Part shown: positions 4,321 through 8,872 of the stretch, in pieces
Layout of the letters: every line of letters starts with the position of its first letter
How positions within the stretch are numbered: the stretch's first letter is position 1
Assembly (NCBI GenBank): GCA_002690755.1
Contig: NZFT01000036.1
Location: forward strand, 4,262 to 18,821
Length of the DNA: 14,560 bases
Direction: 5' to 3'
From: Phycisphaerae bacterium
Lineage (GTDB): Bacteria; Planctomycetota; Phycisphaerae; Phycisphaerales; SM1A02
Translations under genes and position numbers: made by a program
Notes under the pieces: model-generated
Told to the model about the DNA's origin: nothing
Seen by the model: the letters and a program-made list of their open reading frames with translations, nothing else
Database searches by the model: none

Positions 4321-6309
4321 ATGAACAGCATTTCATCCGTCATCGGTCGCGTGCCCAACCTGCTCTCTTCGCAGATGATGGTGGGTTCGATCAATCGAAG
4401 CAATTCCCAGCTGCTCCAGCTGCAGATGCAGCTCGCCTCGGGACGTGCGGTCAACCGGGCGAGCGAGAATCCCGTCGCGGCGGGGACGATCACCGTCCTC
4501 GACGACCTCGTGGAACGACGCGAGCAGCGGGTCCGCAACCTCTCCGAAGCCGGTTCGCTGCTGGGAACGATCGACTCCGCGCTCTCGGAGATGGGGGATC
4601 TCCTCCTCGAGGCCAAGGGCGTCGGCATGTCGCAGATCGGCCTCGGAAGCGACACCCAGACGCGGCGCAACCAGGCCCTGGTCATCGACTCGATCCTCGA
4701 GGGCATGCAGTCGCTCGGGAACCGCGAGTACCGCGGCATGTACCTCTTCGGTGGATCCGAGGTGGGGACCCGACCGTTCGACGGACTGCTGGGCGGGGTC
4801 CAGTACACCGGTTCGGGCGACGGCATGATCACCGATCTCGGCCTGGGCTCCTCGACGCCGGTCACGCTCGCGGGGGATCGGGCGTTCGGCGCCCTGAGCG
4901 CCCGCATCGAGGGTGATCGCGATCTCGACCCGGGGGTCACCGGTGACACGTTGCTGGCGAACCTGAACGGCGGACGAGGTCTCGGCATCGCCGCGGGCCC
5001 GATGATCCTGACCGTGAACGCGGTCCAGGTCGACCTGGATCTCGGGCATGCGATCACCGTCGATGACGTCCGCACCGCGCTCGAGGACGCGATTCGCACC
5101 GTCGACCCGGGTGCGACCGTCGACATCGATCCGGGCAGTGGCGATCGATTCCGAATCACGCCGAGCGTTGGCTTCGACGTCGACATCGCCGATTCGATCG
5201 AAGGAACGACCGCCGCGGATCTGGGACTCACCGGCACCTACGCGGGGGGCGGATCGACCTCGGGCGCCGATCTCGCGCCGCGGTTGACCTGGAACACCCG
5301 GATGGACGCCCTTGACGGCGTGACCACGCCGCTGGGAAGCCTGCGGATCGAGAACGCCGGTCAGGTCCGGGTGGTCGATCTCGCCGGCGTCGAGACGATC
5401 GGTGATCTGCGGGACACCGTGGAGCTGCTCGACATCGGGGTGCGGATCGAGCTCGGCGCCTCGGGTGATCGAATCTCCGTCAAGAACGAGCTTTCGGGCG
5501 GCGCGATGTCGATCTCGGAGGTCGGTGGTGGGGCCACCGCGACCGAGCTGGGGATTCGGAACTTCTCCGCCGACACGCTCCTCTCGGACTTCAACGACGG
5601 TCGTGGCGTCGAGATTCGAAGCGGTTCGGTCGATCCGATCTCCGGAAATCTCGATCCCGATGCGGACGTCGATTTCACGGTCTCGCTGCACGACGGTCGC
5701 GCCTTCGACGTCGATCTCGCCGGTGCCGAGACCGTGCAGGACGTGCTCGGTGCGATCAAGGCCGCCGCGAGCGGGATCGGGCTCGCCGTTCCGGGCGAAT
5801 TCGACGCCGGGCTCGCTTCGGACGGCAACGGCATCGAGTTCACCGACCTGACGGTCGGCGGTGGGGAGCTGACGATCGAACGACGGAACAACAGCAACGC
5901 GGCGGCGGATCTCGGGATCCAGGGATCGACCGCCGGCGCAACTCTTGCCGGAACCGACCGCGCAACGGTGGCGGTCGACGGGGTGTTCGGGCACCTGAAG
6001 GCCCTTCGCGACGCCTTGTACGCGGATGACGAGTCTGGCATCGCCTTTGCAGTTCAACGATTGGAAGCGGACATCGCTCGTTCCACCGAGGCAAGAGCCG
6101 AGGTGGGCGTGCGGGCCCGGCGTGTCGAGGACGCAACCGTTCGGGAAGAGGACCTGCAGGTGCAGGACCTCAGCCTGAAGTCGACCCTGCAGGACCTCGA
6201 CTACACCGATGCGGCCATCCGCTTCTCGCAACTGCAGCAGCAGTTGCAGGCCGGGCTCAGTACCGCCGGCCGGATCACGAGCCTCACGCTGCTGGACTAT
6301 CTCCGGTAG
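4321..6309 (+). CDS. flgL: Flagellar hook-associated protein 3 FlgL, enlarged by internal repeats
   Basis: FlgL joins FlgK to the filament. The N-terminus (VIGRVPNLLSSQMMVGSINR, then QLASGRAVNRASENPVAAGT, residues about 8-60) and the C-terminus (DLQVQDLSLKSTLQDLDYTDAAIRFSQLQQQLQAGL, ending LLDYLR) are the flagellin-like D0/D1 helices of FlgL. Typical FlgL is about 300 residues; this one is 662. The extra length is a beta-rich middle with three related units, about residues 208-308, 321-415 and 419-540. Units one and three open with LL-x-(N/D)-x-N-(G/D)-GRG, and all three close with (A/T)-(D/E)-LGI or LGL, like the Flagellin_IN repeats of flagellins. They would form a surface domain. The start is the ATG at 4321, with GGAG at 4307-4310; the frame is open far upstream inside flgK, but that extension is not FlgL-like. 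Confidence 0.92.
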   Translation: MNSISSVIGRVPNLLSSQMMVGSINRSNSQLLQLQMQLASGRAVNRASENPVAAGTITVLDDLVERREQRVRNLSEAGSLLGTIDSALSEMGDLLLEAKGVGMSQIGLGSDTQTRRNQALVIDSILEGMQSLGNREYRGMYLFGGSEVGTRPFDGLLGGVQYTGSGDGMITDLGLGSSTPVTLAGDRAFGALSARIEGDRDLDPGVTGDTLLANLNGGRGLGIAAGPMILTVNAVQVDLDLGHAITVDDVRTALEDAIRTVDPGATVDIDPGSGDRFRITPSVGFDVDIADSIEGTTAADLGLTGTYAGGGSTSGADLAPRLTWNTRMDALDGVTTPLGSLRIENAGQVRVVDLAGVETIGDLRDTVELLDIGVRIELGASGDRISVKNELSGGAMSISEVGGGATATELGIRNFSADTLLSDFNDGRGVEIRSGSVDPISGNLDPDADVDFTVSLHDGRAFDVDLAGAETVQDVLGAIKAAASGIGLAVPGEFDAGLASDGNGIEFTDLTVGGGELTIERRNNSNAAADLGIQGSTAGATLAGTDRATVAVDGVFGHLKALRDALYADDESGIAFAVQRLEADIARSTEARAEVGVRARRVEDATVREEDLQVQDLSLKSTLQDLDYTDAAIRFSQLQQQLQAGLSTAGRITSLTLLDYLR

Positions 6310-6321
6310 CGACGAAGAAGC

Positions 6322-6337
6322 GGCGCTGAACGGCGCC
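6322..6337 (+). other. GC hairpin directly after flgL
   Basis: GGCGC-TGAACG-GCGCC forms a 5-bp stem 12 nt after the flgL stop. There is no T-tract, so it is not an intrinsic terminator. It may stabilise the 3' end of a processed flgL message or insulate the downstream GGA array. Confidence 0.4.
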
Positions 6338-6357
6338 AACATCGAGCCCACCTCCAC

Positions 6358-6445
6358 CGACCGGATGGGTTCGAGGACAGGAAGTCCACGCCGGACGGAT
6401 CCGGCGGGCACCAAGGATTGGTGGTCGGTCGACCAGGAGCTCGAC
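6358..6445 (+). promoter_or_regulatory. fliW leader: tandem array of four GGA-loop hairpins plus Shine-Dalgarno GGA (candidate CsrA-binding array)
   Basis: Four adjacent stem-loops can be drawn, each with GGA in the loop. Hairpin 1 is CGACC-GGATG-GG(T)TCG (6358-6373, one bulged T). Hairpin 2 is GGAC-AGGAA-GTCC (6375-6387). Hairpin 3 is CGCCGGA-CGGA-TCCGGCG (6389-6406, 7 bp). Hairpin 4 is CACCAA-GGA-TTGGTG (6409-6423, 6 bp). The loop GGAs start at 6363, 6380, 6397 and 6415, spacings of 17, 17 and 18 nt, and a fifth GGA (6436-6438) lies in the fliW Shine-Dalgarno AGGAG. CsrA/RsmA binds GGA in hairpin loops, with site spacing near 18 nt favourable for dimer bridging. The layout resembles the CsrB/RsmZ sponge RNAs but sits in an mRNA leader. 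The function is inferred. Confidence 0.6.
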
Positions 6446-6892
6446 ATGCAACTCGAGACCACTCGTTTCGGAAACGTCGAAATCGACGAAAATCGCGTGA
6501 TCACCTTCCCCTCCGGCCTGCTCGGGTTCTCCAGCTTCACGGACTTCGTGCTGCTGCAACCCGACGAGCAGGGAGTCTTCTTCTGGCTGCAGTCCACCGA
6601 GACGCCGGATCTCGCCTTCGTGGTGACCGACCCGGCGCTGTGGGTGCCCGACTACAAGGCCAACATCCGCCGCGAGCAGATGGAGGATCTCGGCATGAAC
6701 AATATCGACGACGCGCAGGTCCTGGTGGTCGTCAACAAGCGCGACGACCTGCTCAGCGCGAACCTCCAGGGCCCGCTGGTGGTGAACGTCGACGGCAAGG
6801 CGGGCATGCAGCTCGTCCTCGCGGACAAGAAGTGGAGCACGCGACACGAGCTGCTCCGGGTCACGGAACCCGCGCAGGCCGCGTCGGCCTGA
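6446..6892 (+). CDS. fliW: Flagellar assembly factor FliW (CsrA antagonist)
   Basis: FliW is a small beta-barrel protein of the cytoplasm that binds CsrA and relieves its repression of flagellin translation. Free flagellin binds FliW in turn, coupling translation to filament export. The 148-residue product has the family hallmarks: an ETTRFGNVEIDENRVITFPSGLLGF opening (residues about 4-28), FVLLQPD, a FFWLQSTETPDLAFVVTDP core (about 46-64), and a LQGPLVVNVDGKAGMQLVL segment near the end. The ATG at 6446 fits the usual family start and has AGGAG 6 nt upstream. An in-frame ATG at 6365 would add 27 unrelated residues and translate through the hairpin array, so it is rejected. It lies between flgL and csrA, as in Bacillus, which supports the regulatory pairing. 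Confidence 0.95.
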   Translation: MQLETTRFGNVEIDENRVITFPSGLLGFSSFTDFVLLQPDEQGVFFWLQSTETPDLAFVVTDPALWVPDYKANIRREQMEDLGMNNIDDAQVLVVVNKRDDLLSANLQGPLVVNVDGKAGMQLVLADKKWSTRHELLRVTEPAQAASA

Positions 6893-6898
6893 CCGCGA

Positions 6899-7005
6899 CG
6901 GTTCGGATGTGAGCCGCCGGGCGAATCCCGGGGGCGGACCCGCGAGCTCGAGACCCGGTCCCACGGAGTTGGGACGACACGGGTATCCACGGAAGGAGCC
7001 GGCAC
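6899..7005 (+). promoter_or_regulatory. csrA leader with GGA-loop hairpins (candidate CsrA autoregulation)
   Basis: The fliW-csrA spacer holds a clear hairpin GTCCCA-CGGAGT-TGGGAC (6958-6975), a perfect 6-bp stem with GGA in a 6-nt loop. Then ACGGAAGGAG (6989-6998) has two GGAs across the csrA Shine-Dalgarno. The first of these GGAs begins 26 nt after the loop GGA. Upstream, CGGTTC-GGATGT-GAGCCG (6899-6916, one G-U pair) exposes GGATGT, and CGGG-GGCGGA-CCCG (6929-6942) may form a fourth site, though it competes with the CCGGG/CCCGG pairing at 6917-6931. Dual sites with one over the Shine-Dalgarno are the known architecture of CsrA repression, so autoregulation is inferred. Confidence 0.5.
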
Positions 7006-7308
7006 ATGCTGGTGCTCTCTCGACAGCGTGATGAAACGATCATGATCGGAGACGACGTCGAACTGACGATCGTCGACATCCGGGGGGACAAGGTGCGCAT
7101 CGGCATCTCCGCGCCCTCCAGCGTCTCGGTACACCGCAAGGAGGTCTACGAGGCGATTCGGACGGAGAACGAGCAGGCCGCCGCGATCAGCGGCGGGTTG
7201 AACGCATTTCACTCCGGGGCGTTCCCGCGAGTGAATCAGGGCGGGACGGTCCCGCCGTCGGCATCGCGACTCGTCGCGGGGACCGACATCCGGCGGGTGA
7301 CCGCCTGA
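7006..7308 (+). CDS. csrA: Carbon storage regulator CsrA, with C-terminal extension
   Basis: CsrA is a homodimeric RNA-binding protein that blocks translation by binding GGA motifs near Shine-Dalgarno sites; in flagellates carrying FliW its key target is flagellin mRNA. Residues 1-55 are a textbook Csr[47 protein letters not shown]. The RNA-contacting residues L4, R6 and R44 (in VHRKE) are all present. The protein has 100 residues against roughly 60-75 for well-known homologues. The extra tail (about 57-100) is rich in Gly, Ser, Ala and Pro and looks disordered. The start is set by AAGGAG (6993-6998). It lies 113 nt after fliW and 82 nt before flagellin 1, both spacers carrying GGA hairpins, so the gene sits among its probable targets. 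Confidence 0.96.
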
Positions 7309-7326
7309 AGCTCGACCGGCACGACG

Positions 7327-7390
7327 GCGGACGAGGATCGATTCCGCACCGTTTCCGGATGGATTCAAGCCGAAATCACGGAGGATCTCC
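7327..7390 (+). promoter_or_regulatory. Flagellin 1 leader with two GGA-loop hairpins and GGA Shine-Dalgarno
   Basis: The first hairpin (7327-7347) has outer stem GCGGA/TCCGC and inner stem CGA/TCG with a GGA triloop, interrupted only by a 2-nt AT bulge. The second (7352-7375) pairs TTTC(C)GG with CCGAAA and carries GGA (7361-7363) in an 11-nt loop. TCACGGAGGATC (7376-7387) follows at once, with GGAGG at 7380-7384, 6 nt before the ATG. Loop GGA and Shine-Dalgarno GGA are 19 nt apart. This is the two-site layout known for CsrA repression of hag in Bacillus; CsrA control here is inferred. Confidence 0.55.
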
Positions 7391-8872
7391 ATGGCTCGGA
7401 TCAATACCAACGTCTCTTCGATGATCGCTCGAAACAACCTCGGGCGAACGAACGAGAATCTCTCGGTCAGACTGCAACGGCTCTCGACGGGACTTCGGAT
7501 CAACCGGGGTGCCGACGACCCGGCGGGGCTGATCGTCTCGGAACGTCTTCGCTCGGAGATGCGCGGCATCGACCAGGCGATCGACAATTCCGAGCGTGCG
7601 AGTTCGGTCATCGCCACCACCGAGGGTTATCTCGCGGAGGTCGCGGACCTGCTCAACTCGATCAAGAGTCTCGTCGTCGAGGCCGCCAACACCGGCGGCG
7701 TCAGCGACGAGGAGGTCGAGGCCAATCAGCTCGAGATCGACTCGGCCATCGCGTCGATCACCAGGATCTCCAACACCGCGAGTTTCGCGGGGCTGCAGCT
7801 GCTGAACGGCAACCTCGACTACACCACCAGCGGCGTGGATTCCTCGAACATCGAGGGCGTCCAGATCGACGGTGCCCAGTTCGGCTCCAACGGCGATCTC
7901 GACGTCAGCGTCGAAGTGGTCAATGCGGCCGAGACCGCGTCGCTCTTCCTTTCCGGGGATGCGGGCGCCACGTCGGGGGAACTCGACGACAGCGTCACGG
8001 TCGAGATCGCGGGTTCGCTCGGTGTCCAGTCGGTGACCTTCGCATCCGGCACCACGATGTCGGCGATCGTCGCGGCGGTGAACACCCTTTCGGACACCAC
8101 CGGCGTCACCGCGCAGCTCGTGTCGGCGTCCGACCAGAGCAGCGGACTGGTCTTCAGTTCGACCGGCTACGGCTCCGACGAATTCGTCTCGGTCACCAAG
8201 GTGGGACCGGGCGGCACCGACTTCGACACCCTCGACGCCCAGGGTGGCACCGCCACCCAGCGTGACGAGGGTGTGGACGTGACCGCGGTGGTGAACGGTG
8301 CGGTGGCGGTCGGCGACGGCCTGGAGGTCTCGCTCAACTCGCCGGCGCTCAGCGTGCAGCTCGATCTTTCGCAGAACTTCGCGACCACGGTGTCCGGAAC
8401 GGCGAGCGTCTTCTCCATCACGGGTGGCGGCGCGCAGTTCCAGCTGGGACCGACGATCTCGGCGACCCAGAACATCGGGGTCGGCGTCCAGTCGATCGCG
8501 GCCACCCGGATCGGCGGGACCACGGTCGATGGAAGCCGTTTCTTCCTCGACAGTCTCGTGGGTGGGAAGGACAACTCCCTGCTGGCGGGCAACTTCAGCG
8601 ATGCCAGCGACATTCTCGAGAACGCCATCACCGAGGTCTCGGTCCTTCGGGGTCGACTCGGGGCGTTCGAACGGAACACGCTCCAGACCAACGTCCGGAG
8701 TCTCCAGATCGGACTCGAGAACATCACCGCCGCGGAATCCAAGATTCGTGACACGGACTTCGCGGACGAGACCGCCAAGCTCACCCGGGCCCAGATCCTC
8801 ACCCAGGCCGGGACCTCGGTGCTCGCCACCGCGAACGCCTCGGCTCAGAACGTGCTCGCCCTCCTCCAGTAG
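7391..8872 (+). CDS. Flagellin 1 (filament subunit)
   Basis: This is a filament protein exported through the flagellar type III system. The N-terminal D0/D1 region (residues 1 to about 145) has INTNVSSMIARNNLGRTNENLS, LQRLSTGLRINRGADDPAGL and the helix ending FAGLQLLNGNLDYT. The C-terminal D1/D0 region (about 381-493) has LRGRLGAFERNTLQTNVRSL, ENITAAESKIRDTDFADETA and the closing helix LATANASAQNVLALLQ. The middle (about 146-380) is a beta-rich surface domain with Flagellin_IN-like stretches (VEIAGSLGVQSVTFASGTT; FSITGGGAQFQLGP). At 493 residues it is close to E. coli FliC in size but with an unrelated middle. The ATG at 7391 follows GGAGG by 6 nt. It is 82 nt after csrA, and a strong terminator follows. 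The ends are clearly related to flagellin 2 while the middles have drifted apart. It may be a minor or basal subunit, which is inference. Confidence 0.95.
   Translation: MARINTNVSSMIARNNLGRTNENLSVRLQRLSTGLRINRGADDPAGLIVSERLRSEMRGIDQAIDNSERASSVIATTEGYLAEVADLLNSIKSLVVEAANTGGVSDEEVEANQLEIDSAIASITRISNTASFAGLQLLNGNLDYTTSGVDSSNIEGVQIDGAQFGSNGDLDVSVEVVNAAETASLFLSGDAGATSGELDDSVTVEIAGSLGVQSVTFASGTTMSAIVAAVNTLSDTTGVTAQLVSASDQSSGLVFSSTGYGSDEFVSVTKVGPGGTDFDTLDAQGGTATQRDEGVDVTAVVNGAVAVGDGLEVSLNSPALSVQLDLSQNFATTVSGTASVFSITGGGAQFQLGPTISATQNIGVGVQSIAATRIGGTTVDGSRFFLDSLVGGKDNSLLAGNFSDASDILENAITEVSVLRGRLGAFERNTLQTNVRSLQIGLENITAAESKIRDTDFADETAKLTRAQILTQAGTSVLATANASAQNVLALLQ

What the first reader, a model, noticed from the sequence alone, without database searches (positions are those of the whole stretch)
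6358..6445. CsrB-like tandem GGA-hairpin array built into the fliW leader
Four consecutive stem-loops with only 1-2 nt between them each present GGA in the loop (stems about 5, 4, 7 and 6 bp). The loop GGAs are spaced 17, 17 and 18 nt, with a fifth GGA 21 nt further on in the fliW Shine-Dalgarno. Sponge RNAs such as CsrB and RsmZ titrate CsrA with repeated GGA stem-loops, and about 18 nt is a favourable spacing for one dimer bridging two sites. Finding this array in cis, upstream of the gene for the protein antagonist of CsrA and one gene before csrA itself, suggests either a leader that senses free CsrA to set FliW output or an mRNA-borne CsrA sponge. I know of no described case of this arrangement, but I could not search the literature.
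Basis: partly seen in the sequence, partly recalled or inferred. Interest (0 to 1): 0.85.

Follow-up and report, generated by a model that had tools for sequence, protein, structure and literature searches.

The report
Conserved CsrA-site RNA before fliW gene
The stretch of messenger RNA just ahead of the flagellar regulator gene fliW in this planctomycete folds into a conserved, knotted structure that displays several predicted docking sites for the RNA-binding protein CsrA, so CsrA probably controls the production of its own protein inhibitor; binding has not been tested.

Summary
Three hairpins (6375-6387, 6389-6406, 6409-6423) present GGA in their loops and another GGA lies in the fliW Shine-Dalgarno (6436). 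A covariance model built from 11 leaders of ten other genera ranks the window leader first in its genome (E 9.7e-7) and finds 83 of 150 fliW leaders of the family and order. All 17 modelled pairs show two-sided changes, and the long-range helix covaries (61 of 70 leaders, 37 by permutation). No Rfam family matches; outside the order the signal is weak or absent. Best reading: a CsrA operator in the fliW leader of Phycisphaerales, beside a second CsrA-site leader on csrA, that feeds the free-CsrA level back onto CsrA's protein antagonist. A sponge is not excluded. CsrA binding and the direction of control are inferred, not shown.

The parts
6310..6445 (+). flgL-fliW intergenic leader (136 nt), whole structured element
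   Evidence: ORF listing; 6310-6480 MFE z -3.3; top CM hit in own genome, E 9.7e-7, 36.4 bits, C30:10634-10709 = window 6373-6448
6342..6374 (+). P1 hairpin, 9+3 bp, 7-nt apical loop 6356-6362 (ACCGACC)
   Evidence: MFE; in the 71 of 80 relatives with an exact PKa, a stem of >=5 bp flanks it in 97% against 43% with shuffled flanks
6356..6362 (+). PKa, 5' strand of the long-range helix
   Evidence: 7 bp with 6423-6429, duplex -11.2 kcal/mol; covariation
6375..6387 (+). H1, GGA hairpin GGAC-AGGAA-GUCC (common form in relatives GACAGGANGUC)
   Evidence: helix 1: 94.4% of cells paired; the window's H1 holds ACAGGANGU
6389..6406 (+). H2, GGA hairpin CGCCGGA-CGGA-UCCGGCG
   Evidence: helix 2: 91.3% of cells paired, all 9 pairs with two-sided changes
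6409..6423 (+). H3, GGA hairpin CACCAA-GGA-UUGGUG (core CCAAGGAUUGG 6411-6421 shared with many relatives)
   Evidence: helix 3: 87.5% of cells paired
6423..6429 (+). PKb (GGUCGGU), 3' strand of the long-range helix, 5 nt before the Shine-Dalgarno; shares 6423 with the outermost pair of H3
6428..6445 (+). Shine-Dalgarno AGGAG (6435-6439) in the 8-nt loop of a 5-bp hairpin GUCGA-CCAGGAGC-UCGAC; competes with PKb at 6428-6429
   Evidence: GGA at the SD in 80 of 81 CM-aligned leaders
6446..6892 (+). fliW
   Evidence: Pfam FliW 2.3e-36; PDB 5dmb_A FliW 2.9e-20
6958..6975 (+). csrA-leader GGA hairpin GUCCCA-CGGAGU-UGGGAC, followed by CACGGAAG (6988) at the csrA Shine-Dalgarno
   Evidence: sequence and unpaired probability of GGA 6965 = 1.0; csrA leaders hold 125 CANGGANG against 8.65 in shuffles, 148 leaders
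7006..7308 (+). csrA; L4, R44 and N55 present
   Evidence: Pfam CsrA 1.9e-24; alignment to PDB CsrA chains

Best explanation
The flgL-fliW spacer is a structured CsrA-binding leader (operator) of fliW, so far seen only in Phycisphaerales. P1 and the strand just upstream of the Shine-Dalgarno pair at long range and fold the leader into a compact unit that presents three GGA hairpins plus the Shine-Dalgarno GGA. Two CsrA dimers could bridge H1-H2 (17 nt) and H3-Shine-Dalgarno (21 nt). When free CsrA is plentiful it would occupy these sites and block ribosome entry on fliW; when FliW is free it would strip CsrA off and its own synthesis would rise. A second CsrA-site leader would do the same for csrA. 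Shown here: the sequence elements, their conservation, covariation, gene context and lineage range. Inferred: that CsrA binds, that binding represses rather than activates, and that the long-range helix matters for it.
For: GGA-loop hairpins upstream of fliW: mean 2.40 against 0.88 in shuffles (129 of 130 family loci) and 2.40 against 0.95 (20 order loci); with a slightly different rule 2.40 against 0.81 over 149, and 0.96 against 0.65 in 24 leaders outside the order. Three tandem GGA hairpins: 65 of 149 leaders against 3% of 1490 shuffles (not always the homologous three). CM built without the window's genus finds 81 of 91 leaders and 2 of the other 59; in a search of 201 genomes of the order 39 of 41 matches lie directly upstream of fliW. 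Covariation: 91.1% of cells paired, 17 of 17 pairs with two-sided changes, slid controls at most 46%. Long-range helix: 61 of 70 non-redundant leaders carry the exact complement of PKb against 37.3 by permutation, p 5e-5; one row per genus and variant 10 of 17 against 3.8, p 0.0005. Fit to CsrA sites: ACAGGANGU 70 in 149 leaders against 0.3 in shuffles, CANGGANG 59 against 13.5; CANGGANG as a high-affinity form and an 18-nt optimal spacing are quoted in PMC4894983 (passages). SD GGA in 80 of 81; median spacings H1-H2 17, H2-H3 20, H3-SD 21 in the 48 of 81 leaders where all four were recognised. csrA follows fliW in 148 of 150 loci. CsrA keeps L4, R44 and N55 (the role of L4/R44 is recalled; N55D is FliW-binding-deficient in PMC6529632, passage).
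Against: No CsrA binding, RNA or expression data. 67 of 150 family/order leaders are not found by the model, and only 40 of 201 genomes of the order have a match at E 0.001 (how many of the 201 carry fliW was not counted); 11 of 11 other order genomes in the phylum sample have none at 0.01 under the strict filters, so the element is patchy. The window's own fliW leader has no CANGGANG match. In the 81 aligned leaders H2 was recognised in 67 and H3 in 62. In the MFE of 6342-6448 alone P1 is replaced by a nested fold in which the PKa-PKb contact closes a multiloop, so P1 and PK may alternate. PKb overlaps the ends of H3 and of the Shine-Dalgarno hairpin. A4 was fitted to the structure and includes one off-target row, so its pair counts lean to the structure; permutations ignore relatedness except for the one-per-genus test. 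Activation by CsrA is not excluded by the sequences.
Confidence: 0.68

Rival explanations
1. mRNA-borne CsrA sponge: the leader mainly titrates CsrA away from flagellin and other mRNAs, and its effect on fliW translation is secondary.
For: Several CsrA-type hairpins in tandem; precedent of flaA mRNA in C. jejuni and the fim leader in Salmonella (PMC4894983 passages).
Against: Conserved elements reach into the Shine-Dalgarno and a covarying long-range helix ends beside it; some genera not found by the model keep a GGA hairpin on the Shine-Dalgarno; room for about two dimers per mRNA, and this mRNA is expected to be scarcer than flagellin mRNA (both inference).
Confidence: 0.15
2. CsrA activates fliW: binding to H1-H3 opens the long-range helix and frees the ribosome site, giving negative feedback (CsrA raises its own antagonist).
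For: The covarying helix ends 5 nt upstream of the Shine-Dalgarno (coordinates) and could hinder ribosomes when CsrA is absent; this gives a simple homeostat.
Against: The Shine-Dalgarno itself is a GGA site in 80 of 81 leaders and sits inside a GGA hairpin in several genera, which points to occlusion.
Confidence: 0.12
3. A conserved structured leader that is not for CsrA: ribosome standby site, nuclease or other-protein site, with GGA from Shine-Dalgarno-like sequence.
For: H1 often contains AGGAGG; no binding data.
Against: The loop keeps GGA while the next base varies (GGAU, GGAA, GGAG, GGAC); fit to CsrA consensus and dimer spacing; the csrA leaders carry CANGGANG 125 times against 8.65 in shuffles.
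Confidence: 0.08

Closest known systems
CsrA-repressed flagellin leaders (hag of Bacillus subtilis; flaA of Campylobacter jejuni)
   Same: GGA sites in a flagellar-gene leader; in flaA two GGA hexaloops 21 nt apart (PMC4894983), in hag CsrA occludes the Shine-Dalgarno (PMC7652899)
   Different: Target gene here is fliW itself; three hairpins plus the Shine-Dalgarno GGA; covarying long-range helix bracketing the array; conserved in many genera of an order
CsrB/RsmZ sponge sRNAs
   Same: Tandem stem-loops with GGA in the loops
   Different: Part of an mRNA leader, four GGA sites, contains the Shine-Dalgarno, no Rfam match at the curated score
mRNA-derived CsrA antagonists (C. jejuni flaA mRNA; Salmonella fimAICDHF leader)
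   Same: Idea of a leader that can titrate CsrA (PMC4894983 passages)
   Different: Titration untested here; the gene is that of the CsrA antagonist
B. subtilis fliW-csrA translational coupling that fixes FliW:CsrA stoichiometry (PMC6529632 passages)
   Same: fliW directly before csrA
   Different: Here 113 nt separate the two genes in the window and each has its own predicted CsrA-site leader

Membership tests
CsrA-regulated mRNA leader | GGA in hairpin loops near or over the Shine-Dalgarno, beyond chance | tested here: met
CsrA-regulated mRNA leader | site structure conserved in relatives with compensatory changes | tested here: met
   83 of 150 leaders found by the model
CsrA-regulated mRNA leader | host encodes CsrA with RNA-binding residues | tested here: met
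   L4 and R44 by position, their role recalled
CsrA-regulated mRNA leader | CsrA binds and changes translation or stability | not testable with these tools
   needs gel shift, CLIP or reporter
CsrB/RsmZ sponge sRNA | match to an Rfam family of such sRNAs | tested here: not met
   0 matches at gathering score in the window; four sub-threshold matches to other sRNA families for 6300-6460
CsrB/RsmZ sponge sRNA | free-standing non-coding transcript with own promoter and terminator | tested here: inconclusive
   no sigma-70-type promoter and no + strand terminator found in 6150-7420; other promoter types not covered
mRNA-borne CsrA sponge | titrates CsrA from other targets | not testable with these tools
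   needs expression experiments

The most novel reading that the evidence does not exclude
A dedicated CsrA-sensing riboregulator: a pseudoknotted leader, widespread in the order, whose CsrA occupancy sets FliW output and, with the CsrA-site leader of csrA, fixes the FliW:CsrA ratio at the RNA level in place of the translational coupling used by B. subtilis, giving either a bistable switch or a homeostat for flagellin control.
Probability: 0.45. Interest if true: 0.82.

Novelty: new variant of a known kind. Interest (0 to 1): 0.68.

Why it matters
FliW is the protein antagonist of CsrA. In the passages I read, its level relative to CsrA is explained by gene order and translational coupling (PMC6529632). 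A conserved CsrA-site RNA on fliW, with a covarying long-range helix beside the Shine-Dalgarno, would add a missing feedback to the flagellin-FliW-CsrA circuit. The review PMC7652899 leaves open whether FliW and sRNAs act together on CsrA in any species; this would be a related case, with the RNA in cis. It also gives a precise, testable element in a phylum for which the library held only two papers with CsrA, FliW and Planctomycet together (listing only; neither title concerns planctomycete CsrA regulation).

Tried and rejected
Rfam membership: none at the curated score. Second copy in the own genome: the next CM hit (C92, E 0.0027) lies antisense to coding sequence that I read as pilB/pilC-like, taken as chance. 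Spread beyond the order: 7 weak CM hits (E 0.003-0.008) in 246 phylum genomes have no fliW in the 1.6-3.1 kb fetched round them; 24 fliW leaders outside the order (of 49 outside-order genomes with FliW; only 30 loci were fetched) have 0.96 GGA hairpins against 0.65 in shuffles. Transcription attenuator: no + strand terminator. Pairing of the P1 5' arm with the 3' side of the Shine-Dalgarno (UCGAGC/GCUCGA in the window fold): looked at by eye in two relatives only (partial in L033, absent in L056), dropped. MAFFT alignments A1 and A2 mis-register H1 or H2 between genera and were not used for counts; the CM was built from A3, 11 rows chosen by me as one clear type. Rows dropped: L127 (only 10 nt of leader) from the leader counts; G150 (fliW split over two contigs) not fetched; only the 75 of 149 leaders with a recognisable H3 were tested; the off-target row L035:827 and L030 (gap in PKb) were left out; the P1 count leaves out the 9 of 80 without an exact PKa. 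Eleven further order leaders (L191-L201) were looked at but entered no count except L195, which is the same locus as L020.

Full report
What was checked. The window carries flgI, an ORF without Pfam match, flgN, flgK, a flagellin-N/C protein after flgK that I call flgL (4321-6309), fliW, csrA and two flagellins (Pfam). flgL ends at 6309 and fliW starts at 6446. The genome is a 3.47-Mb draft in 133 contigs. Its closest named relatives by FliW (85-88% identity) are titled Phycisphaerales bacterium or Phycisphaera sp., so the order is taken to be Phycisphaerales.

The observation. The five GGAs and their spacings are as described. Folding gives three clean GGA hairpins, H1-H3, with the loop GGAs unpaired at p about 1.0; 6310-6480 folds better than 200 of 200 shuffles. 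In overlapping 136-nt windows over the rest of the 14.5 kb, both strands, 4 were met in 2 of 1682.

Relatives. FliW was found in 131 of 181 family genomes, and in 49 of 61 relatives with a query that was out of frame by my mistake. I took 150 fliW loci (130 family, 20 from other families of the order). csrA follows fliW in 148 of 150. In many leaders the same order of elements recurs: a hairpin, a GACAGGANGUC-type H1, a variable-stem H2, a CCAAGGAUUGG-type H3, a short strand, GGAG, start codon. GGA-loop hairpins average 2.40 per 140 nt against 0.88 (129 family) and 0.95 (20 order) in shuffles. Three tandem GGA hairpins are found in 65 of 149 leaders and in 3% of shuffles; at score 30 or more in 37% against 0.6%. 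This descriptor does not always pick the homologous three.

Covariance model. R1 was built from 11 leaders of ten other genera (A3). It hits 81 of the 91 leaders I judged likeliest, plus one off-target place, and 2 of the remaining 59: 83 of 150. In the own genome the fliW leader is first (E 9.7e-7); the next (E 0.0027) is taken as chance. In 201 genomes of the order 40 have a match at E 0.001 or less, in families f1 to f6, 41 matches in all, 39 directly upstream of fliW; the exceptions are G304:C2 and a second match in G014:C32 (with 10, 13, 49). I did not count how many of the 201 carry fliW. In 246 genomes of the phylum the 7 other matches (E 0.003-0.008) are not near fliW, and 11 of 11 other order genomes in that sample have none at 0.01 under the strict filters. 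So the element is widespread in the order but patchy, and not seen outside it. On the 79 distinct rows of A4 (one of them the off-target place) 91.1% of cells pair and all 17 pairs have two-sided changes; sliding the partner by one to three columns drops pairing to 46% or less. A4 was fitted to the model, which favours it.

Long-range helix. The strand between H3 and the Shine-Dalgarno (PKb; GGCCG in 53 of 80) is complementary to the apical loop of the upstream hairpin P1. The partners change together: window genus and its neighbour CCGAC/GUCGG, others CGGUC/GACCG, CGAUC/GAUCG, UCGGC/GCCGA, GGGCC/GGCCC, CGACC/GGUCG. Of 70 non-redundant leaders 61 carry the exact complement of their PKb within 70 nt upstream of H1, against 37.3 by permutation and 22% in shuffles; among the 24 with PKb other than GGCCG it is 17, against 15% with other genomes' upstream regions. 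With one row per genus and variant it is 10 of 17 against 3.8 (p 0.0005); several of the misses do have a helix when the register moves or G-U pairs are allowed. Where PKa is exact (71 of 80), a stem of 5 bp or more flanks it in 97% against 43% with shuffled flanks. In the window the loop is exactly ACCGACC (6356-6362), 7 bp with 6423-6429, -11.2 kcal/mol. GGCC is self-complementary, so the common form alone would prove little; the variants carry the weight.

CsrA signature. ACAGGANGU occurs 70 times in 149 fliW leaders (0.3 in shuffles), mostly in H1 but in some genera at the Shine-Dalgarno; CANGGANG 59 times (13.5) there and 125 times (8.65) in 148 csrA leaders, against 2 (23) in fliW coding sequence. 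The window's own fliW leader has ACAGGANGU in H1 but no CANGGANG. CANGGANG and the 18-nt optimum are quoted from PMC4894983 (passages); the similar SELEX consensus RUACARGGAUGU is recalled. Median GGA spacings are 17, 20 and 21 nt in the 48 of 81 leaders where all four sites were recognised (H1 in 76, H2 in 67, H3 in 62, Shine-Dalgarno in 80). CsrA of the window has L4, R44 and N55; CsrA N55D is deficient in FliW binding in B. subtilis (PMC6529632, passage). A second csrA lies elsewhere in the genome.

Leaders without the array. In some genera not found by R1 the fliW Shine-Dalgarno lies inside a GGA hairpin directly before the start codon: GGAACGGAGUUCC (as in L130-L133, L135, L140) and GCGACAGGAGGUCGU (as in L114, L119, L123); GGACGGAGGUCC or a close form occurs in L099-L101 and L113, of which R1 finds three (34 chosen leaders were shown, not all). 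Overall the Shine-Dalgarno GGA is in a loop with stem 4 or more in 39% of 143 leaders against 16% in shuffles; outside the order 22% of 23 against 23%. This points to Shine-Dalgarno occlusion as the common theme.

Mechanism. Most likely the leader is a CsrA operator of fliW (see best explanation). If CsrA represses fliW, CsrA and its antagonist form a double-negative loop, while the csrA leader gives negative autoregulation; which behaviour wins cannot be told from sequence. In B. subtilis the ratio of FliW to CsrA is held by translational coupling of overlapping genes (PMC6529632, passages); here the genes are 113 nt apart and each has its own predicted CsrA sites.

Literature. Searches and papers holding the terms: CsrA+FliW+leader, CsrA+GGA+sponge+UTR, CsrA+Planctomycet+FliW, feedback terms, candidate structured RNAs+fliW, CsrA+pseudoknot, fliW mRNA/leader/transcript terms, Phycisphaera+CsrA, multi-site leaders, three of CsrA/Planctomycet/flagell/regulatory RNA. 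I saw listings with the starts of abstracts, 12 to 20 papers of each longer list, and passages of PMC4894983, PMC7652899, PMC11898703 and PMC6529632. Nothing I saw describes CsrA sites in a fliW leader; subscription papers and bioRxiv are not in the library.

Score. The element is well supported as a conserved RNA; its function is inferred. It is a new variant of a known kind (multi-site CsrA leader), of interest because of its target gene and its covarying long-range helix.

Noticed in passing
window 370, 6988, 7377, 9305: CANGGANG overlaps the Shine-Dalgarno of flgI, csrA and both flagellins (4 of 7 + strand matches in the window); strong GGAGG Shine-Dalgarnos make this easier, so it only suggests a flagellar CsrA regulon.
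   Followed up: partly
window 6958-6975 and csrA leaders of relatives: csrA has its own GGA-hairpin leader, in many relatives GGCACGGAUGCC, plus AGGAAGGAG; 125 CANGGANG in 148 leaders against 8.65 in shuffles.
   Followed up: partly
L114, L119, L123; L130-L133, L135, L140; L099-L101, L113 (before the fliW start): In some genera the fliW Shine-Dalgarno is itself in the loop of a GGA hairpin next to the start codon.
   Followed up: partly
G000:C12:19795-19959 (L163): A second csrA gene in the same genome, more divergent (E 1.9e-13).
   Followed up: no
L213 upstream of fliW: A genome of the same class but another order has a CCAGGAUGG element before fliW, perhaps a reduced form of the leader.
   Followed up: no
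L263, L268, L276: Public records titled Limnohabitans sp. and Candidatus Kuenenia stuttgartiensis hold fliW loci 66-70% identical to this FliW: possibly mislabelled MAGs.
   Followed up: no
window 6342-6448: Alternative nested fold in which the PKa-PKb contact closes a multiloop and the P1 5' arm (UCGAGC) pairs with GCUCGA next to the Shine-Dalgarno; a possible switch in this genus.
   Followed up: no
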